Source of the DNA: a virus
IMG/VR virus record: IMGVR_UViG_3300043464_000879
Coordinates: 1-22,845 of that record
Strand: one strand, 5' to 3'
Length of the DNA stretch: 22,845 nucleotides
Part shown: positions 1 through 22,162 of the stretch, piece by piece
How the letters are laid out: each line of letters starts with the position of its first letter
Numbering within the stretch: position 1 is the first letter of the stretch
Made by a program: the position numbers and the translations under genes
Notes under the pieces: model-generated
Told to the model about the DNA's origin: nothing
Databases searched by the model: none
What the model saw: only the letters and a program-made list of their open reading frames with translations

Positions 1-3000
1 GACAGGGATCTTGCTAACATCTTCAAGAACCTCGCGCTGCGGACTCATCGCCACCTTCTTCTGAGTAGAAAGTTGTTTGGCTCGCTTCTGTGCATCCTTT
101 GCCTCGCGGAGATCTGCATCGTAGTTGGCATTCTCCACAACCTTGGCTGCGTATTCTGAGAAAGCCTCAACACTCTTTTCGCTTGTCCAAATGACACGGG
201 CTGCACGTTTAGCCAGAGCCTGAACCTGCTTCGGGCGCACGGGGCCAAGCAGTTCCATGGCTTTAATGATCTCAACCACCTCTTCTGCGGTGCGCTTCTG
301 CTCTGCTTTAGCTGCTCGATTGGCCGCTGCCTTTAGTCGGATCTGCTGTTTGAGCGCGGTCTTTTCATTGACCTGAATCTTGACGGGGGGAACGCGCACA
401 CCCATGAACACATCAAAGAGGCGTTGCATGACGGGCTTCGGGCGATCAGGGTCAACCTCCTTGGGGAGTGTTACACCTTCAGGCAGGGCTTCGACAGACA
501 ATCCCGTTTGGGTTTCAATGAATGCCGTAGCGATGGACTGCTGGATATCGTATTGCTTGGCAATGGCATCGGCCACCTTCTTGGCGTTGGCTGGCGTGAG
601 GTTGGTGTACTCTGTCACCATGTCTTGGAGTTGTCGCTCATCTCCGCCCTGATCCATCCAGACAGAGGCTATCTCGCTGATCTTGTAGGTTTCGGGCTTG
701 CCGCCTTTGGCCTCGGACGCCGCATCCACTTTGGCCATAGACTCCTTCATAGTAGAAAGAGTAGATGCTTCGGGGCTTCCCTCGGAGAAGGTGGGGATAC
801 CGTCTTCTCTGCGGGATTCGCGGATGTCTACGGGCTGGCCATTTCGCCCAGTAATACTGATCACATCCTCATCAAAGATAACGTAGTTTCTGGTTTGAGC
901 CTCTTCCGCAAACTTAGTTGCTTCTTCTTTGGTTTTAAAATAGTTTGATCCGCGATAGTCATCCACAAGCCACCCGAATCCTGTTTTTTTCGGCTGCGCG
1001 AATCTACTTCCTTGATCAAGATATCGGATGCCAATAATACCAGCACTCCTAAATGCCTCGGAAACTTTTTGTTTTGCTCGGAATTCCCTTTCGTCTTGGG
1101 GTAATGCCCTGAACATATCCAAAAATGAGGTCTTGTTCATTTCCTCCATTACGCGATATCTGTAGACATATTGAATTGTAGGATCTTCGTCTACGAGTTC
1201 TTGGATTGTTTTTTTCTCAAATGGCTTCTGTAGCGCGGGCGGAAGAAGCGGCTCCAGTTTTTTGCGGACTTCTGGATTTTGTTCGCTCAATGGCTTGTCC
1301 CAGTCCATCAACTGATCTTCAGAAACATCTAAATCAACACTGTATAGATTCCCCACCCTTTCTATTTTAGCTTCGTTATTATCTCTGAGAATTTGAACTA
1401 TCTGCTGGCTCCATTGCTGGGCTTGTGTGTTTTCGTTATCTGCGTAATAGTCTACATCATTTTCTAGTTCTTGAATTACTTCCTCGCGAGACTTTCCATA
1501 AAATTTGCCCATAGCAAGCCTATCTGCCGCAACATGCGATGGGTTTTTATTGTCGAATTCAGAACCAGCATATCTCAATTCTTTTGCTAGTCTGTTTTTG
1601 TATTCAAGGGCGACATCGATATTCTCGGCAAAGTAAAGCCCCCATCCATAGACAGTTGCACCTTCACCAGTTCCAATCTTTGCCAACTGGAATCTTCCCT
1701 TGATTTCATGCGGTGTTCCGTGGTAGGCGGCGATAGAGTAGGCAAACTCCATCTCGCTCGGAGGAATCAAGACGGCGCGGAGTCCGTTGAAGTTGACCTT
1801 CCTTGCGCCCCGTAGATTTGCAAGAGCATCAGCGGTTGACATCTTGCGGAAAGCGTCATTTACTTCCGCCATGTTTCGGGCGGCGATGTATTCGGCGGCT
1901 CGGCGGGTAAGCTTGTATCCCAGCTTGTTGGCCCACGCCTCAACACGCGCCACGGCACGATCAAACCATTTCCTGCCCCTCCATCCTTCGGCTAGTAGCT
2001 CGACGGCTCTGGCGGCTTCCTCGGCGGTTCTGGCCTTCTCTGCGTAGCCCAACCTAGTGATGGCATCGTTGATTTCTTTTCTTTCTTTCGGGGTCAACCC
2101 CGCAACCAAAGTATTCAATGCTCCATCGGCATTGGCGGATTCGGCAATCTCATGGTTTAGAACTCGCTCAATAGCAGTATCGTCTTTCAAGGCTGCGGCG
2201 TTTAGCTCAATGGCTACTACCTTCCCGTCTCGGATGATGGTGCGGCCTTCAAAGGAGGCATCGGGTTCATTGACCACCGATACGATCCCACCCCGCCCAA
2301 ACCCCAAAGACTCAAGCTTGGTCGCTACTGCTTCGGTCTCCATGCCAGCAGGGCGCGGCATCTGAATCTTGGCATAACGCTCACCCATCGTGACTCCAGT
2401 TGGGCGAGGCTCCAAAACTGCATCCTTAACAAACACACGGGAGCCAACCATAATGGCTTCAGATCCACCAACCACAGCATTCTTGCTGCGAACGTCTACA
2501 AAGAAGCTAGAACGGATCGGATTGTATCCAACCTCAGTCCAGACATTGGGGTCATTAATGTCTGTTGGGAGATCGGTGATTGGTTCGTAGTTACCCTTCA
2601 CGGTTGCTAGTCGGAACTTGCCAGCACCCGTTGCAATGGTTATCGCCCCGCCCTCTCGCACATTGCGGGTCATAAATCTCGGATCTGTAACTTTAGCTAT
2701 GCCAGTAAATGCAGCAACCTCTCCAACCGTTTTGGAATCATCAGCAACTGGAAGATGTGCCGTGATTGCATATACCGTATCTCCCGCCGTTGTTGACCTG
2801 TTATATGTTGGAATATCTATTCTAAACTCATATTCAGAACCTTCTTGAAGTCTGGGATTTCCTTTTTCGTCAATCAATCCAACCTTACCGACTTTATCAC
2901 TCTGAATGTATTGTTTGATTTTGTCATCAGTCGCGACAGGATCTGGGCCTTTGGCCGTAAACGGATCAATGGCATCCACCAAGTCGGCATAGTCTCCAGC

Positions 3001-6000
3001 AGTGATCTCGCCGTTTTTCATCCTGACGGCAGCTACTGCGAGTTGTGGGCTTCGCGCTAAAATTTTATTGGTTGATGCCTTGTCGAAAGCTTTTTGCTCT
3101 TCTTCCGTTTTTGGTGCGTATTGCTGACGCATCTCGACGGAGGGCTCCCGTCTGGCATACCTGATATCTTCTTCTGTGGGCTGGAAGCGTTGGCTGGGAG
3201 GGATGATATTGCCTTGGTTGTCGCGGGTTACGGAGTCTGCCGATTTGACTTGAGATGGCTTAAATACAACCGTGGCATAGTCGCCAATAACGATGGCTGT
3301 CGCCCTGTTTCTTTCGCGGAAAATTCTAATCCAATCTTTTGGCTTACCAGAATTTTGCCACTCTTTAACCTGTTCTGGGGTTAATGTTATTGGATTGCTT
3401 CCTAGATCAGCATACGCATTAATGACTGTGGTTGGATATTCTCCAGAGCTAGGAGTTGCCATCTTCTTGTCAAAGGCCAACCAGATTCCAGTGAGTTTTT
3501 TCCTAAACCTATTGATTACCGAAGCTTCTGTTCCGTGAAAAAGCGGAAGAACTTGGTAGCCACCCCGCCTCGCTGCTTCATTTACAATGCGCTGTTGAGT
3601 TTCGGTGTCGCCGCGATCCACCGCATCCAGATACTCTCTGTCTTGTTGGGTAAGGGGAGCGGGTTCCCTGCGGGATTCTCTTACTTCGGGGGCGGGGGCC
3701 ACTTCTTGAGGAGTCGGCGGCACATAGATATCCTCTACCAGCGTCCAGCCTGCGGGCATACGCACATTGGCTCCCACCTGATCAACTCCGATACGAAGAT
3801 TCTTGGAGATGGCTTCAGCTACTACTTCGTTTGATCCTGTGTCGATTTGGATCTTTCGGGCTTCGGGGTTCAACCTTGGGCGCTCGGCCTCTGGCAACGC
3901 CTCTAGACCCGCTTGCGTGATCACTGGTTGGCCGTTGTATAGCTCGACTAGTCCTTGACCGACCAACCCCGAAACATCCTCTTCTGTTTGTTCTGCTCTT
4001 GCTACTCGGCGTAGAGGTTCAAGATTCGGGGTTTCGGGGGTCGGGGTTACTTCGGGAGCAACCTCGGCGGGAGGAGTCACTGCGGGAGCGGTTGGCGTTA
4101 CAGGCGGGGTAGTCGGAACTGTGGGAGTAGTAAGGGTTGGGGTAATATCGGTAGGAGAAATTTCTTCTGGCGGGGTTTTCCTCCCAAGAATTTCGGTCAT
4201 TGCATCCACAGAGTCATTCCAGTCTTGGTTTTCTCTGTTTATGGTATCGATCTCTTCTTGAGTTAGTGTTTCATCAGTAGCCTTGAACCAGCCATCAATA
4301 GTATTGTTTGTTTTGCGCTTGCCAGATTGTATCGACTTCAATACAGATTCGGCCTTTTGGGTCTCGCCGCGCTCGTTAAATGCCAAGTAGAGTTTTCCAA
4401 GATCCGTAAGTTCTTGATCGGAAACTGGCTTGGTTGTGAGTTTTATCTTTTCCCACCTACCAAAGTCCGCATCATCCAGTTTCGCCGCATCCCGCCATCC
4501 AAGTTCAACGACTTGTTTGTTATATTCTCCATATTGATTTAAAAGATTGCGCTGCTCTTCTGTAAGATTTTCCCTCGTTGCATACATTGAGTTGAACGAA
4601 GCGATATTATCGGCACCAAGTCTTTTTGCTTCGGCGTCCAATTCAGACTTTCTTGTAAGCAGGGATTCGGCTGGTGTCGGGGCAGTGGCGGGTTCTGTAG
4701 GCGTTACCACTGTGGGTTCGGCGGGCTTGACCTGATAGCCATAGCGTTCCGCGATTTGTTCTGGTGTCGGATTGCTTTGGAGGAAGGTGTATTCTTCGGT
4801 CTCTTGGGTGGTGAAGTCCTCTCGTCCCTCCTCATCTTTCTTGCGGAGTTCTTCTAGGCGATTGCGGGCGGCGGACTCAAACCACCTAGCAGACTTGATT
4901 CTTTCTGGAGGAACTGTCGGCTGTGTAGGGGTCGGCCCCGCACCCTCCTCATCAAGTTCTATTCCTGCTGCTGCGGCAGCTTCTTCTTGGAGACGGGCTA
5001 CTCGCTGTTCGGGGGTTTCGGCGCGTTCCCGCTCAATCCTAGCCCTCCATTGTTGGTCGGTCTCTCCTTCTCTGCGAGGGGTAACGGTAGCTGGTATATT
5101 AAGGGTTTCGCCAACCCGTTCAATTTGTTCTTCAACAGCAGCAGCAGAGGCGGGGGCGTTGCTTTGCTTGGCTTCTTGTGCGGCCTTCGCGGCATCCCGC
5201 AAGGCTACGGATTCGCGCATACCAAGTTGCTCTACCTTCGCGCTAATACCGCCAGCCGCGCCACCAAGAACACCACCAAGGGCACCTTCAAGTGCGGCCT
5301 GACCAAATACCCCGCGCATAGGTTCAACATCAAATCCCTCTCTGCCAACAGCCACGTTCGCGGCCAACCTCTCTTGACCGCCCTGCAAAGCCTCCGTGGC
5401 CGTCTCGACAATGCCATCCTTGACCGCACCCCTGACAAATCCTGTTCGCAACACTTCTTGGATAGCCTGCTCAGACACTTGTTCTGCCGCTTCCTTTCCA
5501 ACTTTTCGGGTGATCAAAGAACGGATTGCACCTTCAGCACCAGTGGCAGACGCCGCAATACCCAATCCCGTTCCAAGCATGATCTGATCAAGGTTCTTGC
5601 CATTGTATGCTTGGGCCTCGTTTGCGGCTTTTTCAGCCTTGGCTTCATCCACTCCGCTGTTGATTAGCTGCTCTTTGACCGCATCGTAAATTTCTCCCTT
5701 AACAATACCACCACCAACGGCACCGCCTTGCACCCCCTGCAAGACCGCAATACCAGCCCTGCTTAGTCCAACCGCTTTACCCACACCCGCCGTGGCGATA
5801 AAGGGAATCAAAGATCCGATACCTTGAGAAACCAAGTCTACAGGAGCAACGCTCAACGCCTTGAGACCAGCCCCGATTTCCGCCAGAACACCCTGCCCTT
5901 CGGCCTCCTGCATGATGCGACCGATTTCTTCTGCATCCTCCTTGGCCCCCGCCGAAAGAAGACTCCTATACCACTCGGAGTTCTTGGCAAGATTTTGGGA

Positions 6001-6411
6001 GACCGCATTATTGGCCCCGAAAGCATCGGAAAATCCCTTGACTACATCATTGATTCCAGCGCCAATATTAAGGAAGGGATCGGCTAGGGGACGAAGAAAG
6101 CTTTCTTCGGGAGCCTGTTTAATTGGTGTAACCCCAAGAGACTCTAGTGTCGGGGCTTCAGCGCGGACAAAAGACGGTCTAGCCGTTGCTCTAACTTCTT
6201 CTTCTAGGTATGGCTTTAAAAAAGAATATTCTTCAGGAATCTCTACAGCTTCGGAAACTGGTTCTGGTTGGGGCTGTTCCTCAAGATATGGGCGAAGGAA
6301 CGAGTATTCTTCTGGAATCTCGTCTTCTTTTTCTTTCTCTTCTTCCTCTAAATAAGGCCGAAGAAAAGAAAACTCGTCTTCCGTATTTTCCAACAAATCT
6401 TTAGAGGCCAT
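1..6411 (-). CDS. Giant polyvalent virion-type protein with two ADP-ribosyltransferase-like regions (C-terminus cut off by window edge)
   Basis: Starts at ATG 6411 and stays open to base 1, so at least 2137 residues are visible; every in-frame triplet checked from 1740 down to 1 is free of stops. Residues 12-109 hold repeats of a SFLRPYLEE motif. About 190-390 is rich in Gly/Ala/Val helices that could be membrane-active. About 745-795 is a Thr/Pro linker. About 920-1090 looks like a first ADP-ribosyltransferase fold, with FHGT at H959 and VKSADSVT then IIPPSQRF near 1056-1075. About 1295-1310 has a GYNPIRSSFFVD motif typical of polyvalent proteins. HEIAE at 1420 resembles a broken zincin site. 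About 1560-1850 is a second ART-like domain, with AYHGTPHEI (H1564), GWGLYFAE and NYVIFDED. The visible C-terminus is Lys/Glu/Ala-rich and probably helical. Known proteins of this type are carried in the capsid and injected with the DNA to modify host targets. Such a role here is inference. The fold calls are fairly confident, activity is not. Confidence 0.8.
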   Translation of the reverse strand, partial: MASKDLLENTEDEFSFLRPYLEEEEKEKEDEIPEEYSFLRPYLEEQPQPEPVSEAVEIPEEYSFLKPYLEEEVRATARPSFVRAEAPTLESLGVTPIKQAPEESFLRPLADPFLNIGAGINDVVKGFSDAFGANNAVSQNLAKNSEWYRSLLSAGAKEDAEEIGRIMQEAEGQGVLAEIGAGLKALSVAPVDLVSQGIGSLIPFIATAGVGKAVGLSRAGIAVLQGVQGGAVGGGIVKGEIYDAVKEQLINSGVDEAKAEKAANEAQAYNGKNLDQIMLGTGLGIAASATGAEGAIRSLITRKVGKEAAEQVSEQAIQEVLRTGFVRGAVKDGIVETATEALQGGQERLAANVAVGREGFDVEPMRGVFGQAALEGALGGVLGGAAGGISAKVEQLGMRESVALRDAAKAAQEAKQSNAPASAAAVEEQIERVGETLNIPATVTPRREGETDQQWRARIERERAETPEQRVARLQEEAAAAAGIELDEEGAGPTPTQPTVPPERIKSARWFESAARNRLEELRKKDEEGREDFTTQETEEYTFLQSNPTPEQIAERYGYQVKPAEPTVVTPTEPATAPTPAESLLTRKSELDAEAKRLGADNIASFNSMYATRENLTEEQRNLLNQYGEYNKQVVELGWRDAAKLDDADFGRWEKIKLTTKPVSDQELTDLGKLYLAFNERGETQKAESVLKSIQSGKRKTNNTIDGWFKATDETLTQEEIDTINRENQDWNDSVDAMTEILGRKTPPEEISPTDITPTLTTPTVPTTPPVTPTAPAVTPPAEVAPEVTPTPETPNLEPLRRVARAEQTEEDVSGLVGQGLVELYNGQPVITQAGLEALPEAERPRLNPEARKIQIDTGSNEVVAEAISKNLRIGVDQVGANVRMPAGWTLVEDIYVPPTPQEVAPAPEVRESRREPAPLTQQDREYLDAVDRGDTETQQRIVNEAARRGGYQVLPLFHGTEASVINRFRKKLTGIWLAFDKKMATPSSGEYPTTVINAYADLGSNPITLTPEQVKEWQNSGKPKDWIRIFRERNRATAIVIGDYATVVFKPSQVKSADSVTRDNQGNIIPPSQRFQPTEEDIRYARREPSVEMRQQYAPKTEEEQKAFDKASTNKILARSPQLAVAAVRMKNGEITAGDYADLVDAIDPFTAKGPDPVATDDKIKQYIQSDKVGKVGLIDEKGNPRLQEGSEYEFRIDIPTYNRSTTAGDTVYAITAHLPVADDSKTVGEVAAFTGIAKVTDPRFMTRNVREGGAITIATGAGKFRLATVKGNYEPITDLPTDINDPNVWTEVGYNPIRSSFFVDVRSKNAVVGGSEAIMVGSRVFVKDAVLEPRPTGVTMGERYAKIQMPRPAGMETEAVATKLESLGFGRGGIVSVVNEPDASFEGRTIIRDGKVVAIELNAAALKDDTAIERVLNHEIAESANADGALNTLVAGLTPKERKEINDAITRLGYAEKARTAEEAARAVELLAEGWRGRKWFDRAVARVEAWANKLGYKLTRRAAEYIAARNMAEVNDAFRKMSTADALANLRGARKVNFNGLRAVLIPPSEMEFAYSIAAYHGTPHEIKGRFQLAKIGTGEGATVYGWGLYFAENIDVALEYKNRLAKELRYAGSEFDNKNPSHVAADRLAMGKFYGKSREEVIQELENDVDYYADNENTQAQQWSQQIVQILRDNNEAKIERVGNLYSVDLDVSEDQLMDWDKPLSEQNPEVRKKLEPLLPPALQKPFEKKTIQELVDEDPTIQYVYRYRVMEEMNKTSFLDMFRALPQDEREFRAKQKVSEAFRSAGIIGIRYLDQGSRFAQPKKTGFGWLVDDYRGSNYFKTKEEATKFAEEAQTRNYVIFDEDVISITGRNGQPVDIRESRREDGIPTFSEGSPEASTLSTMKESMAKVDAASEAKGGKPETYKISEIASVWMDQGGDERQLQDMVTEYTNLTPANAKKVADAIAKQYDIQQSIATAFIETQTGLSVEALPEGVTLPKEVDPDRPKPVMQRLFDVFMGVRVPPVKIQVNEKTALKQQIRLKAAANRAAKAEQKRTAEEVVEIIKAMELLGPVRPKQVQALAKRAARVIWTSEKSVEAFSEYAAKVVENANYDADLREAKDAQKRAKQLSTQKKVAMSPQREVLEDVSKIPV
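6199..6378 (-). repeat. Three-fold SFL(R/K)PYLEE linear-motif repeat in the giant protein
   Basis: Residues 12-23, 34-45 and 60-71 of the giant protein follow [DE]E[FY]SFL[RK]PYLEE almost without change. They are separated by acidic, disordered-looking linkers that differ in length and sequence. A fourth, worn copy reads EESFLRPL at residues 102-109. Conserved motifs within variable linkers suggest repeated docking sites for one partner, perhaps a capsid or portal protein, rather than a folded domain. That partner is a guess. Confidence 0.8.
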
Positions 6412-6417
6412 GACTTA

Positions 6418-8052
6418 TTATGCCCCCAATAATACTTCTCTTTCTTGTTGTAGTCTAATGTATTCCTCTCTGAGGGACGGATTTGAATTGAATGCGCCAA
6501 TCTCGTTCATTCTTTTACGAATCTCACCAGCCCTTTTAAATTTTTCCTTATTCTTTGAGGATCTTGTTTCTTTAAGCTGGCTTGAAATCCTTGAATAAAG
6601 TTCGCGCTGTTGTTTGTTGGGACTAAATTTGTATCCCAATTTATAAAGACGATCAAGTTCTGATCCTAGCGTTTCTTCATCAGTCATATCCCGAATCATT
6701 GACTCAGAAGCAACGGTTTCTAATGTGGGTTCTGGCCTTGTCTGGGGCCGTGTGACCTGTGCTGTTGGGGCGGTCTCTGTAGTGCCCCCCCGTGTAGCTG
6801 GAGCTTGGGTTGGCGCTGTCTGGGTCTCAATAGGAATATTGTTATTTTCCAAAAATCTTTGAGCAGCCCTGCGAATTGATTCGCTTTGATTTGGGTCATT
6901 TGCCGCTTTTTGTGCTGTCGCAATCTGTGTCTCTGACGGGCGCTCTCTTTCGGGCCTTTCGGCTGCTGGAGTTGGCTCTGTTTGTCCAGTTTGGGAGAGA
7001 TAGCTATCAATTCCAAGAAGATCGGTAGCCAGCATGTTGCGTTGGATGGTTAGTTCTTCCAACTTTTGTTGCGCCACTTCTCTTTTCTTTTCATTTGTTC
7101 CAGCCGCTTCTAGTTCCTTTGTGGCTGTAACAATACCCATGTCTTTCTCTCTGATAGAAGAGCGAAGTTCTTTGGCTTCCTGACGCAACACCGAAGAAGC
7201 TGGATCGGCAGCTTGCCTTTCGGGTCTACGCGCAAGCTCGGCCTCCGCCTCTCCAACAGCTATGGGATCGACAATAAGCTCCTGTGTTTGTATGTCGCTT
7301 TGGGCTAAGTCAGAAAGATTACGCCCTGTCAACTTGGCAAGTTTAGTAAGCTGCATCAATTGCTGATCCCGTTGTCCACTTGTTGCTTCAGTTTCTTGTG
7401 CTTTTTTCTCATCTCTCTCCCGATAAATTTTGTTTATCTCATCATACTCGTTTGTGAGTTTTTGAATGTTCGGGTCCGCAAGAGCTAGAGGATTGTCATC
7501 ATAGAGTTTGGTGCGCTCAATCAGATAGTCGGGAGATCTGGGATCAAGCTGCCTCAATCCCGAAGCAAAGGCCATTCCTTGTTTTTCTATTTCTAAATCT
7601 TTTGTGCTATTAGCAAGGTCTGCTTCCACCTCTTTGTTATAGCGATATTCTTCCCGCGCTTCTTGCCTTGCGGCTCTTTCAAGTTGTCTTTGATATTCTG
7701 CTTGCGCCCGCATCTCTTGTTGTTGTTGAACGGCGGCTGCTTGTTGTTCATCCCAAGCTTGTTGCATGCGAAAGGCTCTGCGAGTGGTTCCTGTCGGGCG
7801 ACCACCATAAGCTTCAGGTAATTGCGATGCTGGACGGTCTCCGCGCCTCACCTCTTCTGCCACCATGGCTTCACGGGATTCTTTGCTGGCTAAAGGAGAA
7901 GCCCCCCAACCCCGCTCCATCCTCATGCGTTCTTCGCTGGTTAACGGCGAAAGCCCAGCTTGGGCAAAACGCTCGCGTTCGGCGGGATCACTGGATGTTC
8001 CCCAGCCCCAACGGACCCTTGCTGCGTCAAAAGCTGAAAGAGGTTCGGCCAT
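6418..8052 (-). CDS. Coiled-coil, Gln/Glu/Arg-rich protein, probable virion or internal protein
   Basis: 544 residues from ATG 8052; the stop lies six bases before the start of the giant protein gene, so the two are surely co-transcribed. The N-terminus has two related stretches, WGWGTSSDP (residues 15-23) and GWGASPLA (48-55). Residues 92-158 form a strongly charged, Gln-rich predicted coiled coil. A long polar region follows, with more helix-prone heptads (about 270-360), a Pro/Thr/Gln-rich linker near 360-450 and a helical, basic C-terminus. There is no signal peptide or membrane segment. I do not recognise a family. Position next to the giant protein, and the elongated helical make-up, fit an internal core or ejection protein, but this is context only. 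Confidence 0.75.
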   Translation of the reverse strand: MAEPLSAFDAARVRWGWGTSSDPAERERFAQAGLSPLTSEERMRMERGWGASPLASKESREAMVAEEVRRGDRPASQLPEAYGGRPTGTTRRAFRMQQAWDEQQAAAVQQQQEMRAQAEYQRQLERAARQEAREEYRYNKEVEADLANSTKDLEIEKQGMAFASGLRQLDPRSPDYLIERTKLYDDNPLALADPNIQKLTNEYDEINKIYRERDEKKAQETEATSGQRDQQLMQLTKLAKLTGRNLSDLAQSDIQTQELIVDPIAVGEAEAELARRPERQAADPASSVLRQEAKELRSSIREKDMGIVTATKELEAAGTNEKKREVAQQKLEELTIQRNMLATDLLGIDSYLSQTGQTEPTPAAERPERERPSETQIATAQKAANDPNQSESIRRAAQRFLENNNIPIETQTAPTQAPATRGGTTETAPTAQVTRPQTRPEPTLETVASESMIRDMTDEETLGSELDRLYKLGYKFSPNKQQRELYSRISSQLKETRSSKNKEKFKRAGEIRKRMNEIGAFNSNPSLREEYIRLQQEREVLLGA

Positions 8053-8710: not shown

Positions 8711-9685
8711 TTAAGTCATGTTTACGAGTCGGCGGGTAAGCCAAGGAGCAATTTGCATAACCCCTTCTTGCCCTGCGTTATACTCTTTTAGTTCGGCGTT
8801 GAGAAGAAGAATCGCTCTGTCCATGTAATATTGTCCACGCTCGACATCGGCCTTTTCTTCGGCGTTGAGGGCCATAAGACCAAGCTTGATTGCTTCCAGA
8901 GAATCGGGATAGAGCGGATCATTGTCGCTAATAGCCCAGCAATGCTTACGCTTGAAGATGCCTTGGACAGCGTCCCAATTGCGGTCTACCAGATAGCGGC
9001 GGTAGCTGATTACCCGCTCGCCTGCCTCATACTTGGCAAGCGTAGTCGCCCCAGCCGATAGGGAGATAACGCCCGTGGTAGGGGTCTTCTCGACAGAATA
9101 GATCTCTTTAAACGTCTGTGAAGTGGTTTGGGTTCCGTCTCCAAGGTCAAGACGAATTCCCTCCACTCGTTCTCCATCCACTGTAGAATAAATTTTATTC
9201 CCATTTGAGTCCTTTCCGCGAATCCAGATGTAGCTTCCTGCACACTCTGTCTCGCTGCTAGATATGGTAAGTTGGGACGGCGTCTCCATGTCCCGAAATG
9301 TGACAAAGCCTTCTCCCATGTCTTGGATGGGGCCGAAGTATTTCTCATCCGCCTTACGGATGCCGCGCCCTTGGGGCAAATACTGATACCACTCACTCTG
9401 CACGGCTACGGTCTTGTATCCCGCCTTGCCAGCCCGAATACAAGTCTCCAGATGGCGAGGAAGGGTAATAAACTTGTTGTCGTTGGCGTCCTCGTAGGCG
9501 GTGATAAGTGCCTGCACCAGAGTACCTTGCCACTTGCCTTCGGCCAATACCCTCTCGCAGAAGCGATTGATGTTATTGCGAAGTTCTGCTTCCGCATCAA
9601 AACCCGCCAGATCAGGAGGATCGGCAATGGGTTTTACTGATGCAGGAATTCTCTCGCAGGCGAGGCCAAGGGTCAATGAGGACAT
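8711..9685 (-). CDS. Putative virion structural protein, head-tail connector-like
   Basis: 324 residues from ATG 9685; the stop is one base from the start of the next gene. The N-terminal 60 residues are helical (FDAEAELRNNINRFCERVLA, about 29-48) and lead into ITLPRHLETCI. A central all-beta region (about 85-215) has IRGKDSNGNKIYSTVDGE and repeated Gly/Asp turns. The C-terminus (about 250-310) is helical, with a LEAIKLGLMAL segment and a RAILLLNAELKEYNAG segment. This helix/beta/helix plan, with a late LLNxxLKEY-type helix, resembles proteins I associate with podovirus head-tail adaptors or tail tubes. The resemblance is by pattern only. The 46 bases upstream separate it from the glycosyltransferase gene and contain a weak six-base stem (CCTTCT/AGAAGG). 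Confidence 0.6.
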   Translation of the reverse strand: MSSLTLGLACERIPASVKPIADPPDLAGFDAEAELRNNINRFCERVLAEGKWQGTLVQALITAYEDANDNKFITLPRHLETCIRAGKAGYKTVAVQSEWYQYLPQGRGIRKADEKYFGPIQDMGEGFVTFRDMETPSQLTISSSETECAGSYIWIRGKDSNGNKIYSTVDGERVEGIRLDLGDGTQTTSQTFKEIYSVEKTPTTGVISLSAGATTLAKYEAGERVISYRRYLVDRNWDAVQGIFKRKHCWAISDNDPLYPDSLEAIKLGLMALNAEEKADVERGQYYMDRAILLLNAELKEYNAGQEGVMQIAPWLTRRLVNMT

Positions 9686-13239: not shown

Positions 13240-16200
13240 ATGGCAGAGCAACCACCCCTAAATCGTTCCTACGTTATTTCTTATGCGGCGAACGATAGAG
13301 ACTTTCCAACGATTGGACTGAGAGCAGATCCCCGTGTTGCGGGGTATCGGGTGCCAGAGGATTTAAGTCCCCATCCTGATAGCAAGCGTTATCCTAACCA
13401 TGTCTTTACAGGTTCCCAGCCTTCCAATGGGGACGAGCGGGTTACCCACATTTACGAGATCCTACCTTCTCCTTGGGTGCCGTTTACCCGCTACGATGAC
13501 GATCTGGGCCCGATTCAGGGAAGGCGCAGGGCAGTCAAAAACGAGAACCAACAAGCCAGTCTAGCCACCGATAAAAAGGTTTCCTATGAGGGTCGCGAGG
13601 GTTCGGCAATTGTTTCAAATGAAATTGAGGAGACTTGGTCGATCAAAACCGATGAAGATGGCAACTCTCTTTTTCCTATTCGGGATCGGGATTTTTATGA
13701 TGCTTCTCGCGGCCCAGTTCAAGAACGCCGTCAACTCTTCGTGCCCACGGGAGAAGAAGAGGGAAGCCTAGAAAATATAAACGGAATCATTACCCAGACT
13801 TCTTACGAACCTTACAACGAATTTCTTTCGGTCAAGATTGTCCAGACCTACAAGGTGGATGGACCACAACTGATTGGCAGGGCCACCGACAATGATGGGC
13901 AACTCGTTACAATTACAACACAACGCAAGGGAGCCGATGGATATGTCCCTCCCAATCCCACTGCTACTAGGACTGTAGAAGTTTCCCGCGAGGATGCCGA
14001 ATCTCTTGTTGAGCGCATTGTCGATACGCCAGAAGTATTTACCGCCAAGACGTTTTCTGTTGAACGTCCCGATCCTATTCCACAAAAATTTCGCGTAGCC
14101 GTCCCGCTTCAATCAGAGCAGGAGGTAATTGCGGGTGAAGCCGAATTACCAACCCTGCTTACTGGTGAGATTTCCAGAACCGAAGAACAGCGCAACAAGT
14201 TTCTCAAGAGAACAACAGCGACTTCGCGTGATCAATCAGTTTTGCCCAAGACCCTCATTCAAAAGGCCACCGACAATGACCGTCAAGAAGTAACCATTAC
14301 CGAAACGCTTCAGCTTGGAAATACTTCAGAAAAACCAACGGCAACCACCACCATTGAAAGTGAAGCTTTAGGTGATGGTAATTTTGTTATTCGCAAAACC
14401 CAAGTTCCAGAAGTCTTTTCCGCCAAAACATTTCAAAAAACAAAAGATGACCTTACTCCGCAAAAGTTTCGCGGGGCACAAGAAAGTAATACCATTGAGG
14501 AAAACGTTGCTGGAACAGCCACCGCACCCAAACTTTCCGCTGGAGAGTTTGCCAAGAGCGAACAACAGATAAACAAATTTGTAAAAAGAGTTTCCACTAC
14601 ATCAAGGGCTATCACTTCGGCGGTTACTCTTGGTGAGAAAGTTCTTACCCCAGAAGGACTGATTGGATCAAGGGTTCTTACACTTGCAAGTGGAGATCAA
14701 TCTTTTACACCATCAGCCAAAATGATCGATGCTTCGGTAGAAGCTCTTGGAGATGGCAGGACTGTCAAAACCGAAACCACTATACAAAAAATCTTTGATG
14801 GCAAATCAATCCGAAAATCCAAGCCAGATCTAACGCCAGAAAAATTCCGAGCCAAACAAGAAGAGTTTCTTACTGAAGAAAATGTTGAAGGAATTGTTAT
14901 TGAAAATTTTTCGCTTGAGGATGGTGAGTTTTCAAAAACCGAACAACAAATTACCGAATTCGTTAAAAGAATATCCACCACATCAAGGGATATTACTGCC
15001 GCCGTTTCTTTGGAAGAAAGTGTACTTACACCACAAGGCCAACTGGCCACCAGAATAATTCGTTTAGCTGATGGTCCCCAAACCATAAATCCGAGCGCAA
15101 CGCTAATTGACGCCTCTGTTGAAGAACTGGGTGATGGAAGAACCATTAAAACAGAAATTAACGTTCCCGTTGTTTTTGACGAAAAACAGCAGTCTTTACA
15201 AAAACCCGACTTTATTCCTGTGGAGTTTCGGGCTTCCCTGCCAGACTTGACAGAAGTCACGGTAAAATCTGGAACCGAGGCCACAGTTGGTTCGCTTGAA
15301 GAAAACGAAGTCGCGAAGAGCGTTCAAAGGGTGACCGAAGATAAAATTCGGGAAACAAAAACCACAAGACAAGTTGGTCCATATCCCCAACTTACAGAAC
15401 AAATAGTTGATAATGACGGATTGGTCATTACTAGAACCAAAACGGTTGTTGATGGACAACAACAGATTTCAGTATCCGCAACTCGAAGCGGAAGCGTTCA
15501 GGCTTTAGGTGATGGATTCACTTTAAAAACACAAGATACAAAGTCTAAAATTTTTAGAGGTCAGACGTTTTCATCCGAAAAGCCAGACAATATTCCTGTA
15601 GAATTTCGCGCCGAAAAGCCAGCCATTACAGAAGAATTTAATGAAGTTGGAACGGCAACAAACGTAACGCTGTTCAACAATGAAATAGCCAAATCAGAGC
15701 AACAAATTACTGAATTTGTAAAGAGAACAAGAAAGACTACAAGAGATCTTACTAATTCTGCCATTCTTACTGGTGAACAAATAGATGAAAATGGATTAAA
15801 GGCCGTTGTAACAAGGACACTTTCAAATGGAGTTCAGTCCATTGAACCATCCGCATTTGTCAGTGGTCAGGTTGAAGATATTGGTGACGGAAAAACAATT
15901 AAAACAGAGATTACTAAAGATGAAGTTTTTTCAGAAAAAGTTCTATCTGTTGAAAGGCCCGAAACTATTCCAGCCGCTTTTCGCGCCGAAAAACCAATAA
16001 AAATAAATGAAGAAACAGTAGAAGGGGAAATCGAAGAAGAATTACAGCTTGAAGAAACCGAGCTATCAAAAAGCGAGCAGCAGGTTACAAAATTTACAAA
16101 AAGAAAAAGGACCACATCAAGAGATGATATTGATGGCACCCAACTTACAGACGAACGAATCAATGAATTTAAACAAAGGGTCATAATTACAAGAACGGTT

Positions 16201-17580
16201 GACAGGGGGACACAGGTTATAAATCCATCGGCAACCATAAGCGGAAATGTGGAATCTTTGGGGAATGGATACACCTTAAAGACAGAAGAAGAAATAGGTG
16301 AAATATTTGAAGCAAAAACAGTTTCCACGGAGCGTCCAGACCCAGCACCTCAAAAGTTCAGAATTGAACTTCCTTTGGTTACGAAGCAATCAACGATTGA
16401 AGGAGAAGTTGAAGAAAGTCTAAGTCTTAATAATGACGAAATATCAAAATCCGAACAACAGATTGACGATTTTGTTAAAAGAATATCCACCACATCAAGA
16501 GATGACGCTCCAAGTGGAACACTGGTTGGAAAACAAACGGGAACTTGGGGAGCAGAATCTGTTACCGAAACATACAGTGAAGACGAAACATTGGAGGTTG
16601 GCTATTCAATTTTATCCAATAGAAAAACTCCGTTGGGTGGCGGAAAATATATTGGAGAAAAGATTCAAGTCGATTCGCCAGCCCCGTTAATCGAATACAA
16701 GCAAGATCCAGAAACAAAAACATTACTTAGAGTTGAGAAGTCCCTTATACAGGGTCCGCCGCTTTCTCCACAAACTATTCAAAATGGTTCCATAGAACAT
16801 CAATCTATTGATGTTTGGAACACCATTCAAATTATAACAAGCGTTCAAAAACTCCCAGATGAAGAAGTTTTTGAAACAACAATGAATTATAGATATCCAG
16901 ATGTATTGAGAGAAGCTGGAATTAATTGGGAGGTTGGCAAGGATACAGGATCAGAAAACGATGGAGTTTTTAATGCAGACTTTATAAGAGATAATGGATT
17001 GAGTTGGAATTTCGGCATTTCAACATACGGATCTTCAACTCTGAGGGGCTCTGCTTATGTAAAAATAGAACAGGGATATTCTGGGCCAGTAAGGTGCAGA
17101 GTGACAAGAAAGTATTATTTGAATCCTCCCTCAAACACCCCTCAAATCTATAAGTGGAATCCAGCTTATGGATCTATAACAATTAATGGAATTGGAAGAT
17201 TTTTAAAAAGCGGAATTAATGTCAGCGGCACTGGCGATACAAGATTAAAAGAGGCAAGGACAACACAGCTTAAATCCGACACATTTGCAAATACCATTGT
17301 GTTTGGTCCAGTTCTTCAAGATGGTATCCAATTACAAAATGAAACCCCAGATGAAGACACGTTTATTCAAATAGAGTCCTCAAGCAACTCAGATTTGCCA
17401 GATAGGGGCGCTTTCCCAAGATCTTTCACAGAGGTTGGTTCAAATGGCGTTGCCACTCTTCATATAGGATCAACGGCCACGCCCCCAAGTTCTGGATTTG
17501 AAAATGTTGGAATGGTTAACGTGGAAAAATGGAGATTTGGAATTTGGATCGAAGAAGTATACAAGGTGTTCCATCCATAA
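13240..17580 (+). CDS. Long tandem-repeat fibre-like structural protein
   Basis: 1446 residues from ATG 13240. Residues 1-250 form a non-repetitive head (opens MAEQPPLNRSYVISY, many Tyr/Pro). Residues about 263-1090 contain seven copies of a repeat of about 126 residues, each with LGDGxTxKTE (worn or absent in copy 1), then PDxxPxxFRAxxP, then KSEQQxxxFVKRxxTTSRD. Residues about 1100-1446 are a separate beta-rich, Gly/Ser/Asn-rich domain ending KWRFGIWIEEVYKVFHP. There is no signal peptide or membrane segment. Regular repeats capped by distinct end domains are typical of phage fibres and other elongated surface proteins, with the C-terminal cap often binding the host. Gene order with two further beta-type genes supports an appendage module. 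No named family is recognised, and enzymatic activity is not indicated. Confidence 0.8.
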   Translation: MAEQPPLNRSYVISYAANDRDFPTIGLRADPRVAGYRVPEDLSPHPDSKRYPNHVFTGSQPSNGDERVTHIYEILPSPWVPFTRYDDDLGPIQGRRRAVKNENQQASLATDKKVSYEGREGSAIVSNEIEETWSIKTDEDGNSLFPIRDRDFYDASRGPVQERRQLFVPTGEEEGSLENINGIITQTSYEPYNEFLSVKIVQTYKVDGPQLIGRATDNDGQLVTITTQRKGADGYVPPNPTATRTVEVSREDAESLVERIVDTPEVFTAKTFSVERPDPIPQKFRVAVPLQSEQEVIAGEAELPTLLTGEISRTEEQRNKFLKRTTATSRDQSVLPKTLIQKATDNDRQEVTITETLQLGNTSEKPTATTTIESEALGDGNFVIRKTQVPEVFSAKTFQKTKDDLTPQKFRGAQESNTIEENVAGTATAPKLSAGEFAKSEQQINKFVKRVSTTSRAITSAVTLGEKVLTPEGLIGSRVLTLASGDQSFTPSAKMIDASVEALGDGRTVKTETTIQKIFDGKSIRKSKPDLTPEKFRAKQEEFLTEENVEGIVIENFSLEDGEFSKTEQQITEFVKRISTTSRDITAAVSLEESVLTPQGQLATRIIRLADGPQTINPSATLIDASVEELGDGRTIKTEINVPVVFDEKQQSLQKPDFIPVEFRASLPDLTEVTVKSGTEATVGSLEENEVAKSVQRVTEDKIRETKTTRQVGPYPQLTEQIVDNDGLVITRTKTVVDGQQQISVSATRSGSVQALGDGFTLKTQDTKSKIFRGQTFSSEKPDNIPVEFRAEKPAITEEFNEVGTATNVTLFNNEIAKSEQQITEFVKRTRKTTRDLTNSAILTGEQIDENGLKAVVTRTLSNGVQSIEPSAFVSGQVEDIGDGKTIKTEITKDEVFSEKVLSVERPETIPAAFRAEKPIKINEETVEGEIEEELQLEETELSKSEQQVTKFTKRKRTTSRDDIDGTQLTDERINEFKQRVIITRTVDRGTQVINPSATISGNVESLGNGYTLKTEEEIGEIFEAKTVSTERPDPAPQKFRIELPLVTKQSTIEGEVEESLSLNNDEISKSEQQIDDFVKRISTTSRDDAPSGTLVGKQTGTWGAESVTETYSEDETLEVGYSILSNRKTPLGGGKYIGEKIQVDSPAPLIEYKQDPETKTLLRVEKSLIQGPPLSPQTIQNGSIEHQSIDVWNTIQIITSVQKLPDEEVFETTMNYRYPDVLREAGINWEVGKDTGSENDGVFNADFIRDNGLSWNFGISTYGSSTLRGSAYVKIEQGYSGPVRCRVTRKYYLNPPSNTPQIYKWNPAYGSITINGIGRFLKSGINVSGTGDTRLKEARTTQLKSDTFANTIVFGPVLQDGIQLQNETPDEDTFIQIESSSNSDLPDRGAFPRSFTEVGSNGVATLHIGSTATPPSSGFENVGMVNVEKWRFGIWIEEVYKVFHP
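14026..16500 (+). repeat. Seven in-frame tandem repeats of about 378 bp
   Basis: The FR motif anchor codons begin at 14086, 14464, 14842, 15223, 15601, 15976 and 16354, which is spacing of 378, 378, 381, 378, 375 and 378 bases (126, 126, 127, 126, 125 and 126 codons). Copies have diverged a good deal in DNA but keep a shared protein pattern. Copies 3 and 7 share an exact 26-base stretch (14962-14987 and 16474-16499), exactly four units apart. An eighth, partial unit may follow (PLGGGKYIGEK). Confidence 0.9.
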
Positions 17581-19211: not shown

Positions 19212-19498
19212 ATTTTTGGCCTGACAAATACCATCTCGCGGGTTTTACCAGTTTGAATAACCTTTTTCTTTATCGACTCCATCTTGTCGCTATTAGCCAA
19301 CTCCAACACCCTCTGCCTTGATAGGCTGGTCATTCGGGCGACATCCCGAACCGTCTTCCATCCTTCGGCCTCCATGGCTTCAATTGTGGTCTTGGTGTTG
19401 TCTTCCCTGAAAGACTCCCAGACGCTATCCCATGACGGGACTACAATTTTATCATCGGAGCCTTTTGCTCTTCCAGTTTTGCTATAATGGGTTGCCAT
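19208..19498 (-). CDS. Helix-turn-helix DNA-binding protein
   Basis: 96 residues from ATG 19498. It overlaps the end of the phosphoesterase gene by 58 bases, more than any other pair here; the only later ATG (residue 43) would remove much of the N-terminus. Residues 46-68 (GWKTVRDVARMTSLSRQRVLELA, read in two parts) make a helix-turn-helix, and GKTREMVFVRPK at 84-95 looks like a wing. Similar small phage proteins bind DNA through such a motif, and a regulator is possible. Its start is preceded by AAAGGAAC eight bases upstream, the only plausible SD motif found in the window. Target genes are unknown. Confidence 0.65.
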   Translation of the reverse strand: MATHYSKTGRAKGSDDKIVVPSWDSVWESFREDNTKTTIEAMEAEGWKTVRDVARMTSLSRQRVLELANSDKMESIKKKVIQTGKTREMVFVRPKI

Positions 19499-20229
19499 GT
19501 GTATGTTCCTTTGTTAACGGTGAAAGTGACGAAACCGAAGTCCACAATACCCGTGCAGCGTCTGGCTCCGTAGCGACTACCGAATCCTTGTAGGGCTGGG
19601 GTGGTCATAGCCAGCCAGTCTGGGCCTCCAGCAAAGTTATGGTAGTGGACATGGGATCTGATAAATACATCTCCCTTGGGCTGCAACTCTTTTTCGGCCC
19701 ATATAAGGTTCCAGAGGCGGTCTCTGGCCACTCCGCTATGGCGACCGTGGGGAATACCGCTGGAGCCTGCTGGGTGGTGTTTAAGGTCAAATACAACCCC
19801 TTCCACATCCACCCATTCATGTTCTCCGATAGCTGCTCCAACCCTATCAGCAACAATGTTTTCCCAATCCTCCGAATCCCCTGTATGGTAGGGCGTTCCA
19901 CGGGTAATGACGATAGAACAGTTTTTTGTTTTCGGGATTTCACGGATAATCTTAACCGCCATATCACACTGCTCTTCCATGTCAGTGGTGATTTGTTCGG
20001 TGCCTCCCGACTTTTTACCTGTGCCGTCTACAAGGTCTCCGTTGAGGAAGATAACATCGTAAGGTCCATGGAGGTTGATGTGTTTCTTATACCAGTTGTA
20101 GTAAGCCTGATTGGCGCGAACCCACCGTGCCCTTTCGTTTGCTGGTTCTTCGGGTAGATAGCCTTTTGGGGTCAGTCCGACCTTGTGGCCGCAATGGAAA
20201 TCCGAAAGGACTGCTATTTTTTTACTCAT
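19441..20229 (-). CDS. Calcineurin-like metallophosphoesterase
   Basis: 262 residues from ATG 20229, coupled to the upstream gene by ATGA. The metal-binding motifs of the superfamily are in order: SDFHCGH (D10, H12), NGDLVDG (D65, D68), RGTPYHTG (H115) where most members have GNHD/E, KHHP (H151/H152), and SHVHYH (H193, H195). The GTxxH variant is seen in a subgroup of phage phosphoesterases that I recognise by pattern. Such enzymes hydrolyse phosphodiesters or monoesters with a pair of metals; the substrate cannot be told. Neighbouring nucleotide-type genes suggest nucleic acid or nucleotide turnover (inference). No signal peptide, so cytosolic. The family assignment is secure. Confidence 0.88.
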   Translation of the reverse strand: MSKKIAVLSDFHCGHKVGLTPKGYLPEEPANERARWVRANQAYYNWYKKHINLHGPYDVIFLNGDLVDGTGKKSGGTEQITTDMEEQCDMAVKIIREIPKTKNCSIVITRGTPYHTGDSEDWENIVADRVGAAIGEHEWVDVEGVVFDLKHHPAGSSGIPHGRHSGVARDRLWNLIWAEKELQPKGDVFIRSHVHYHNFAGGPDWLAMTTPALQGFGSRYGARRCTGIVDFGFVTFTVNKGTYTWQPIIAKLEEQKAPMIKL

Positions 20230-21335: not shown

Positions 21336-21488
21336 CTAGTCTTGGGTTTCTCCGCAATGCTTGCATCGGATAATATTGACGCCTCCCATTGATAAACGTT
21401 CAATCTTTTCCGACCCACAGTAGAAACAGGTTTTGCTTTCGGGCTTGCGGTAGATCTTTTTCTTTCGGGGCTTGGGCTGGTCTTTCAT
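21336..21488 (-). CDS. Zinc-ribbon microprotein
   Basis: 50 residues, ATG 21488 to TAG 21336-21338. It opens with a basic stretch (MKDQPKPRKKKIYRKP) and then has CFYCGS at 21-26 and CKHCGE at 42-47, two CxxC knuckles about 17 residues apart, the layout of a zinc ribbon that binds one zinc ion. The start overlaps the endolysin stop as ATGA and the next gene starts four bases after its stop, both typical of this genome. The basic arm plus zinc ribbon suggests nucleic acid or protein binding. Too short for usual cut-offs, which explains why it could be missed. Confidence 0.8.
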   Translation of the reverse strand: MKDQPKPRKKKIYRKPESKTCFYCGSEKIERLSMGGVNIIRCKHCGETQD

Positions 21489-22162
21489 CGCGCTGTTGAC
21501 GAGTTAATCCTGACGTAATTCCTTACCAATGAAGATGTTCTGGTTTTGAGCCACACGCCGTCACCAGAGGTAGAATCTCGCGTTCCCCGACCGTTGGTAT
21601 TTCCCTCCACGCATTGGAAGTTTTTTTCACCAACCTTGACCACAATCCCGATATGGGAAAAATCAAAGATGACAAAGTCCCCCACTTGAGGCTTGGCTTT
21701 TGAGGATAAAACCTTGGTGGTTGCAGGACGCCCCTTTGCCCACTGGATATACCCGAATGCTGCTGCGGTCTTGGGCCTCCACTTTTCTGGGGTCATAACC
21801 TTGAGTCCAAGCCATTCCACGTTCTCCTTGTCTTTGAGCCACTCTTGAATTACCCAACCCGTAAACGCCGCACACCACGGCCATGAAGCTGGCTTCAGAC
21901 TGGTTGCCGATTGGTACTTGCGGATCTTGGCCCCGTTGTTGTTGCCGCCAGACTCCTTCACCCCGACTTGGGATAGGGCAATCTTGGCTAGATTCTCAAG
22001 AGCCTTGGGGGTCTTCTGTTTCGGGGCAGGTTTGGTCTTGGGTTCTTTTGGCGGTTCGGGCTTTAAGCTCTCTTGCGATTCGGAGGGCAAGCTCGGTGAG
22101 GACGGCGCTTGGCCAGTATCGAAGCCGATAGAACCAAAGAGTTTCTGGATTAACTTTAACAT
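21485..22162 (-). CDS. CHAP-domain endolysin or peptidoglycan peptidase
   Basis: 225 residues from ATG 22162. The N-terminus is short, amphipathic and Lys/Leu-rich (MLKLIQKLFGSIGF), followed by a Pro/Ser/Lys linker at 18-53. The CHAP (NlpC/P60-like) domain covers about 55-215: ALSQVGVKESGGNNNG, then WPWCAAFTGWVI with catalytic C97, GDFVIFDFSHIGIVVK with H170, and CVEGNTNGRG with N188 or E186 as third residue. CHAP enzymes cut peptide bonds in peptidoglycan. There is no cleavable signal peptide, so export would depend on the holin-like gene two genes upstream. It might instead be a virion-borne lysin, but the gene order favours lysis. Confidence 0.85.
   Translation of the reverse strand: MLKLIQKLFGSIGFDTGQAPSSPSLPSESQESLKPEPPKEPKTKPAPKQKTPKALENLAKIALSQVGVKESGGNNNGAKIRKYQSATSLKPASWPWCAAFTGWVIQEWLKDKENVEWLGLKVMTPEKWRPKTAAAFGYIQWAKGRPATTKVLSSKAKPQVGDFVIFDFSHIGIVVKVGEKNFQCVEGNTNGRGTRDSTSGDGVWLKTRTSSLVRNYVRINSSTAR

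What the first reader, a model, noticed from the sequence alone, without database searches (positions are those of the whole stretch)
1..6411. One giant phage protein with two separate ADP-ribosyltransferase-like regions
Seen: two HGT-type sites about 600 residues apart (H959 and H1564), each with its own downstream signature (VKSADSVT...SQRF in one, GWGLYFAE...NYVIFDED in the other). Known: polyvalent phage proteins join effector domains and enter the cell with the DNA. Inferred: two ARTs of different subtype could modify two host targets early in infection. The long Gly/Ala helices near 190-390 might help cross the membrane.
Basis: partly seen in the sequence, partly recalled or inferred. 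Interest (0 to 1): 0.62.

Follow-up and report, generated by a model that had tools for sequence, protein, structure and literature searches.

The report
Mosaic phage ejection protein, two ART folds
A very large phage protein, probably packed in the virus head and injected with the DNA, carries two swappable ADP-ribosyltransferase-fold domains that both lack the usual catalytic acid, and close relatives show that such domains are exchanged like cassettes between conserved seams.

Summary
Window 6411..1 (minus strand) is one open frame of 2137 aa, cut at the contig end; relatives imply about 970-990 more residues. H959 and H1564 each start an ADP-ribosyltransferase (ART) fold, by Pfam PF18760 and AlphaFold (pLDDT 80 and 87). 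ART2's best structural match is a cyanophage A4 pre-ejectosome chain (Z 11.3), so a comparable ART-like domain has been seen inside a virion; PARPs follow (Z about 8.5).

Neither domain has a canonical triad. ART1 reads H959-W977-A1046, yet is under purifying selection (dN/dS 0.04-0.15). ART2 belongs to a widespread phage/prophage family with H1564, Y1593 and an Asn (N1842; 142 of 144) where PARP1 has Glu988. "Two enzymes for two host targets" is therefore unproven.

New here: the gene is a multi-slot mosaic. Ten relatives share the same DNA seams (65 of 72 block ends coincide, 21 expected). One relative, L007, is a natural empty site for the ART1 cassette, the junction falling in a repeated RREP motif. 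ART1's caps are 63% and 73% identical across phages, its core 22%.

Polyvalent proteins with ARTs are known (up to 12 copies), so I file this as a new variant of a known kind.

The parts
1..6411 (-). Giant polyvalent-type protein gene, 2137 aa seen, C-terminus cut by the contig end; relatives suggest about 3,110 aa in full
   Evidence: complete relatives L003, L006, L007 and L011 run 971-988 aa beyond the residue matching W 2135-2137
6085..6369 (-). N-terminal tandem motif SFL[RK]PYLEE (residues 15, 37, 63; partial copy at 104)
   Evidence: best 9-mer repeat score 47 against a maximum of 31 in 40 shuffles
4942..6117 (-). Conserved Gly/Ala-rich helical N-terminal region, residues 99-490
   Evidence: 79-88% DNA identity to relatives, dN/dS 0.068
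3703..4092 (-). Seam module, residues 774-903, shared by nearly all relatives
3661..3681 (-). Seam motif copy 1, RESRREP (residues 911-917)
3142..3660 (-). ART1 cassette, residues 918-1090; absent from L007, which joins copy 1 directly to what follows copy 2
3229..3564 (-). ART1 fold, residues 950-1061; H959, W977 (Tyr position), A1046 (Glu position)
3142..3162 (-). Seam motif copy 2, RYARREP (residues 1084-1090)
1843..2379 (-). Conserved module, residues 1345-1523, with HEIAE at 1420 (zincin-like? a HEXXE, not HEXXH, motif)
   Evidence: identity as a peptidase not shown
838..1743 (-). ART2, residues 1557-1858; H1564, invariant E1583, Y1593, N1842 at the PARP1 Glu988 position
898..990 (-). Small inserted beta/alpha element in ART2 before the last core strand (GWLVDDYRGSNYFKTKEEATKF), present in part of the family
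802..822 (-). Seam motif copy 3, RESRRED (residues 1864-1870), start of the constant C-terminal region
1..828 (-). Start of the constant C-terminal region (residue 1862 onward), truncated here
6418..8052 (-). 544-aa gene directly upstream, same strand; relatives keep a homologue there
   Evidence: no Pfam or PHROG match
8711..9685 (-). 324-aa gene upstream in the same run of genes, 77-98% identical in relatives
   Evidence: function not identified

Best explanation
A giant mosaic ejection (polyvalent) protein of a divergent tailed phage. It is most likely made late, packed in the capsid and injected with the genome. Along it lie at least five interchangeable slots separated by conserved seam sequences at which related phages recombine, so the set of injected domains can be changed without losing the frame or the delivery ends. 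Two slots hold ART-fold domains. ART2 (H-Y-N) most likely binds NAD+ and mono-ADP-ribosylates, or otherwise acts with NAD+ on, a host molecule early in infection. ART1 (H-W-A) is a maintained but catalytically atypical ART fold, more likely a binding domain or pseudo-enzyme than a second active transferase. Shown: the ORF, both ART-like folds (predicted), residue conservation, seams, natural empty site, purifying selection. Inferred: packaging, injection, NAD+ use, host target.
For: Fold: PF18760 match. AlphaFold models have pLDDT 80/pTM 0.73 (ART1) and 86.7/0.80 (ART2). VIA-align of ART2 puts cyanophage A4 pre-ejectosome chain 9k3a_B first (Z 11.3, 160 residues, rmsd 4.3), then PARP10, tankyrase and PARP13 (Z 8.2-8.5) and diphtheria toxin (7.6). 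ART1: ParT 7.8, NatT 6.8, tankyrase 6.8. Virion link: by its annotated genes and size, A4 gp27 (Anabaena phage A-4L, 1717 aa) appears to be that chain and carries SLYHGT...GSGTYFS...TTLVINPD. An ART2 relative in virus vir555 lies in a 1974-aa protein two genes after an annotated internal virion protein; phiGT1_5 is an ART2-type protein between the portal and scaffold genes. Mosaic: DNA blocks against 10 relatives share 65 of 72 ends within 5 residues (21.0 +/- 5.2 in rotations, maximum 42); L007 lacks ART1 with a clean junction at RREP. Function kept: dN/dS ART1 0.037-0.146, ART2 0.097. ART2 residues: H 141/141, E1583 141/141, Y 141/141, N1842 142/144.
Against: No proteomics for this phage or its relatives. 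No terminase, portal or capsid gene was recognised in the relatives by Pfam or PHROGs. Foldseek alone gave no significant hit for ART2, and VIA Z under 8 for ART1 is in the range the tool calls common. Neither ART has the canonical acid, so catalysis is not shown. H and partly E/Y conservation of ART2 is inflated by the search patterns, though N1842 is not. Seams may be conserved as protein modules and only incidentally serve recombination.
Confidence: 0.63

Rival explanations
1. Both ART-fold domains are active ADP-ribosyltransferases with two different host targets; ART1 would use a non-canonical set of residues.
For: Two folds, both under purifying selection; mono-ART PARPs work with a non-acidic third residue (own knowledge: PARP10 is H-Y-I); Alt of T4 is a packaged ART that modifies RNA polymerase (PMC5512222).
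Against: ART1 lacks both the Tyr (W977) and the Glu/Asp (A1046); in its slot Glu is present in only 8 of 21 relatives and the Tyr position holds Y, F, W or H.
Confidence: 0.13
2. The ART folds are structural or scaffolding parts of the ejection apparatus without NAD+ chemistry, as may be the case for the ART-like domain in the A4 pre-ejectosome.
For: Best structural match is a pre-ejectosome chain whose own Glu position reads Thr; triads are atypical in both domains.
Against: The ART2 family keeps the HG[TS], Y, E, R and N positions almost without exception from viruses to bacterial genomes, and phiGT1_5 is a single-domain version, which suggests an active pocket rather than a scaffold; slots are swapped out entirely in relatives.
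Confidence: 0.2
3. The giant protein is an N4-like virion RNA polymerase with ART domains, as in Roseovarius Plymouth podovirus 1.
For: Size, and the ART plus peptidase-like arrangement of CBX87992.1.
Against: PF21769 vRNAP_dom is found strongly in the RPP1 control (1.2e-46) but in none of the window protein or its ten relatives; the window protein's last third is missing, but complete relatives lack it too.
Confidence: 0.04

Closest known systems
Polyvalent proteins of phages with ART-PolyVal / Tox-ART-HYD2-like domains (Iyer et al. 2017, PMC5512222; Pfam PF18760)
   Same: Giant multidomain phage protein, ART domains in several copies, shuffled architectures, predicted injection with DNA
   Different: Described active site is H-Y-D; here H-W-A and H-Y-N. 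DNA seams, a natural empty site and a cap/core ART slot are not described in the passages I read
Cyanophage A4 (Anabaena phage A-4L) pre-ejectosome protein, PDB 9k3a chain B (Hou et al. 2025, doi 10.1073/pnas.2423403122; paper not held, cited in PMC12810830)
   Same: Giant internal protein of a short-tailed phage with an ART-like domain; best structural match to ART2 (Z 11.3)
   Different: One ART-like HGT site found in gp27, no detectable profile-sequence similarity to ART2 (E about 0.35-1), Thr at the Glu position
Roseovarius Plymouth podovirus 1 vRNAP CBX87992.1
   Same: HGT-type PF18760 ART inside a giant virion protein
   Different: Has an RNA polymerase; by my reading keeps Glu at the third position (GEIMVVK)
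T4 Alt
   Same: Packaged, injected ART that modifies host proteins
   Different: R-S-E clade, not H-Y type; not a polyvalent protein (PMC5512222)
Polymorphic toxins (PMC3482391)
   Same: Conserved frame with exchangeable effector domains
   Different: There variability is mainly C-terminal; here at least five internal slots lie between constant ends

Membership tests
PF18760 ART-PolyVal | Score over the curated cut-off (31.2 bits) for the whole protein | tested here: met
   33.8 bits, two stretches; each region alone is below it (25.8 and 19.9)
PF18760 ART-PolyVal | ART fold | tested here: met
   Predicted models; PARP, tankyrase, ParT and A4 matches; not experimental
PF18760 ART-PolyVal | H-Y-D(/E) active site as described by Iyer et al. 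| tested here: not met
   ART1 H959-W977-A1046; ART2 H1564-Y1593-N1842
Polyvalent phage protein (class) | Several unrelated functional domains in one phage polypeptide | tested here: met
   Two ART-fold domains here; GNAT, HD, LPD38 and HEXXH segments in slots of relatives
Polyvalent phage protein (class) | Packaged in the virion and injected | not testable with these tools
   Only indirect: gene context and A4 structure
N4-like virion RNA polymerase | vRNAP domain PF21769 | tested here: not met
   Absent from window and relatives, present in the RPP1 control
T4 Alt/VIP2 ART clade | R-S-E active site | tested here: not met
   Histidine-type sites with HGT motif
Zincin-like metallopeptidase (residues 1345-1523) | HEXXH motif | tested here: inconclusive
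   HEIAE at 1420, also present in five relatives; no Pfam match; fold not predicted

The most novel reading that the evidence does not exclude
Related phages keep an arms cabinet inside one gene: a giant ejection protein with constant delivery ends and at least five internal slots bounded by conserved DNA seams, where effector cassettes are inserted, lost and swapped in frame. One slot keeps ART caps and exchanges only the core. Another holds a founding case of an H-Y-N ART family whose acid may have moved to the invariant Glu of the GTGEG loop.
Probability: 0.4. Interest if true: 0.72.

Novelty: new variant of a known kind. Interest (0 to 1): 0.55.

Why it matters
It turns a general idea (phages shuffle injected effector domains) into something testable: named seams, a natural empty site and a cap/core slot predict where new effectors will be found. 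The ART2 family occurs in viral contigs and in more than 60 bacterial-genome loci, with an Asn in place of the catalytic Glu almost without exception, so one biochemical assay would settle the activity of a large unassigned group. The A4 pre-ejectosome match links such domains to a solved in-capsid structure.

Tried and rejected
Sequence search of solved structures with ART2, with its alignment and with the whole protein found nothing relevant. Foldseek against the PDB gave no significant hit for ART2, and only weak PARP/RES/exotoxin A hits for ART1 (E 0.009 at best); VIA-align was needed. The first genome scan with a narrow alignment found nothing; the wider one worked. NCBIfam gave only sub-threshold noise, Cse1 and a lipoprotein. 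tblastn of the constant C-terminal region and of the upstream 324-aa protein against isolated phages: no match. Terminase family PF03237 in six relatives: none. Two large G001 genes of terminase/portal size had no convincing PDB or Pfam match. The motif string DIRYSR and 'H-Y-N' with ADP-ribosyl occur in no held paper. A protease-site reading of the RREP/DIRYS motifs was considered; nothing supports it beyond recurrence at domain borders. Mass-spectrometry Table S3 for phiGT1 exists (PMC10386132) but was not readable here. One pair-counting call was misapplied to a protein alignment. Searches failed on frame, holding, file or time.
Full report
What is there. The window is a 22,845-base IMG/VR virus record. 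The ORF 6411..1 on the minus strand encodes 2137 residues without a stop and runs off the contig. H959 and H1564 and all quoted signatures are at the stated residues. Nine relatives from viral contigs carry homologues of 2,173-3,647 aa (several complete, some cut), and a tenth, L002, a fragment; alignment to the complete ones puts 971-988 residues beyond the cut, so the full protein should be near 3,110 aa.

Two ART folds. Pfam ART-PolyVal is passed by the whole protein (33.8 bits against 31.2) but by neither region alone. AlphaFold with alignments of relatives gives pLDDT 80 (ART1, 21 sequences) and 86.7 (ART2, 58 sequences). ART1 matches ParT (Z 7.8), NatT and tankyrases (Z about 6.8). ART2 matches the cyanophage A4 pre-ejectosome chain 9k3a_B (Z 11.3), then PARP10, tankyrase 2, PARP13 (8.2-8.5) and diphtheria toxin (7.6). 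Foldseek alone was weak for both, so the fold call rests on Pfam plus VIA-align plus the motif order. Profile comparison of the two domains aligns only their HGT-to-GxYF parts (probability 88%): two divergent subtypes, not a recent duplication.

Active sites. In ART2, model residue 298 (N1842) lands on PARP1 988, tankyrase-1 1291, tankyrase-2 1138 and PARP10 987 by counting back from the aligned range ends, and model H20 (H1564) lands on PARP1 862 and tankyrase-2 1031 from the other end. That those are the catalytic residues is my own knowledge, and the arithmetic assumes no gap between the counted positions, but several independent chains agree. N1842 is Asn in 142 of 144 sequences; H1564, E1583 and Y1593 are kept in 141 of 141, R1803 in 141 of 144 (earlier subset 65 of 65 Asn). 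The H motif and, for bacterial loci, the E/Y motifs were part of the search patterns, so those are partly selected; N1842, R1803 and Y1604 were not, and E1583/Y1593 were not for the viral set. The family is therefore H-Y-N with an extra invariant Glu in the GTGEG loop. ART1 has H959, W977 at the Tyr position and A1046 at the Glu position; in its slot the third position is Glu in 8 of 21, otherwise V, A, S, H, Q or I. Even so, ART1 evolves under purifying selection (dN/dS 0.146, 0.037 and 0.044 for three pairs), as does ART2 (0.097). It is not decaying; it does something that does not need the classical triad.

Seams and slots. DNA comparison of the gene with ten relatives gives matching blocks that begin and end at the same places: about 464-490, 774-903, 905-932, 1045-1090, 1349-1519 and 1862 onward. 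Of 72 block ends (blocks ending at contig edges and one short block were left out by hand), 65 lie within 5 residues of an end in another relative; rotating each relative's blocks 2000 times gives 21.0 +/- 5.2, maximum 42. Block ends are BLAST alignment ends, so they are approximate, and some relatives share ancestry. Between seams the content differs: slot 490-774; a junction at 903/905 where L006, L098 and L109 hold some 285-409 extra codons; the ART1 core; 1090-1349; and ART2. In L007 the DNA reads straight from the first RREP copy (residues 911-917) into what follows the second (1084-1090) of the window, without the ART1 cassette: a natural empty site, or the state before insertion. The ART1 cassette is 95-96% identical in L008 and L009, in different neighbourhoods. 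Across 16 non-redundant sequences the N-cap is 63% and the C-cap 73% identical while the core is 22%; the C-cap was in the search pattern, the N-cap was not. Slots of relatives hold other domains: GNAT, HD, HEXXH segments, LPD38 (some below Pfam's cut-off).

Virion link. No proteomics is available for this group and its morphogenesis genes are too divergent to name. Indirect evidence: A4 gp27, 1717 aa, lies next to the annotated internal protein gene and carries the ART-like motif; its identity as chain 9k3a_B is my inference from length and residue numbering. In vir555, a predicted virus of methanogenic archaea, the ART2 relative sits in a 1974-aa protein two genes after an annotated internal virion protein. 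In phiGT1 an ART2-type protein lies between portal and scaffold genes. A weak PHROG match to an internal virion protein falls in the N-terminal region of L006/L101 (E 0.044). A polymerase of the N4 type was not found, with a control that works.

Mechanism. I think the protein is packed and injected, that its constant ends serve packaging and delivery, and that the slots carry early-acting domains chosen by recombination between related phages. ART2 probably uses NAD+; ART1 more likely binds than catalyses. Delivery, NAD+ use and target are inference.

Known or new. Polyvalent proteins with multiple ARTs are established (PMC5512222). The seam/slot organisation with a natural empty site, the cap/core ART slot, the H-Y-N family and the A4 structural link are, as far as the held papers show, not described; the search for them in the literature was limited.

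Noticed in passing
window 6085-6369, and N-termini of L002, L003, L004, L006, L007, L009, L096, L104, L109, L124: Giant polyvalent proteins often begin with 2-4 tandem copies of a short aromatic/acidic motif, different in each phage (SFLRPYLEE, FDPDAYLSE, NPDEFIRKY, WWERDL, SFLDEF, PWSDFSEP...). 20 of 42 distinct N-termini beat all 40 shuffles. Possible capsid-packaging tags; not tested.
   Followed up: partly
L208:18011-19591: A relative's calcineurin-like phosphoesterase gene carries an intein-like insert with a LAGLIDADG segment (sub-threshold Pfam); the window's copy (19441-20229) is about 264 residues shorter and lacks it.
   Followed up: no
window 3112-3270 and many loci (L099-L121): The ART C-cap IKSADPVTRDDQGNVIPLSQRF..DIRY is nearly invariant across unrelated phages although the ART core before it varies; function of this tail unknown.
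   Followed up: partly
BK063671 (L212:4552-10476): An ART2 relative occurs in a predicted virus of Methanomicrobiales, so the family may reach archaeal viruses; the Tunturi_5 relative is annotated MutT/NUDIX hydrolase.
   Followed up: no
window 13240-17580: 1446-aa protein of repeated units (EFVKR..TTSRD, KPD..P.KFRA), without Pfam match; probably a fibre, its homologues differ strongly between relatives.
   Followed up: no
window 21485-22162: CHAP-domain protein (1.2e-6), a likely endolysin.
   Followed up: no
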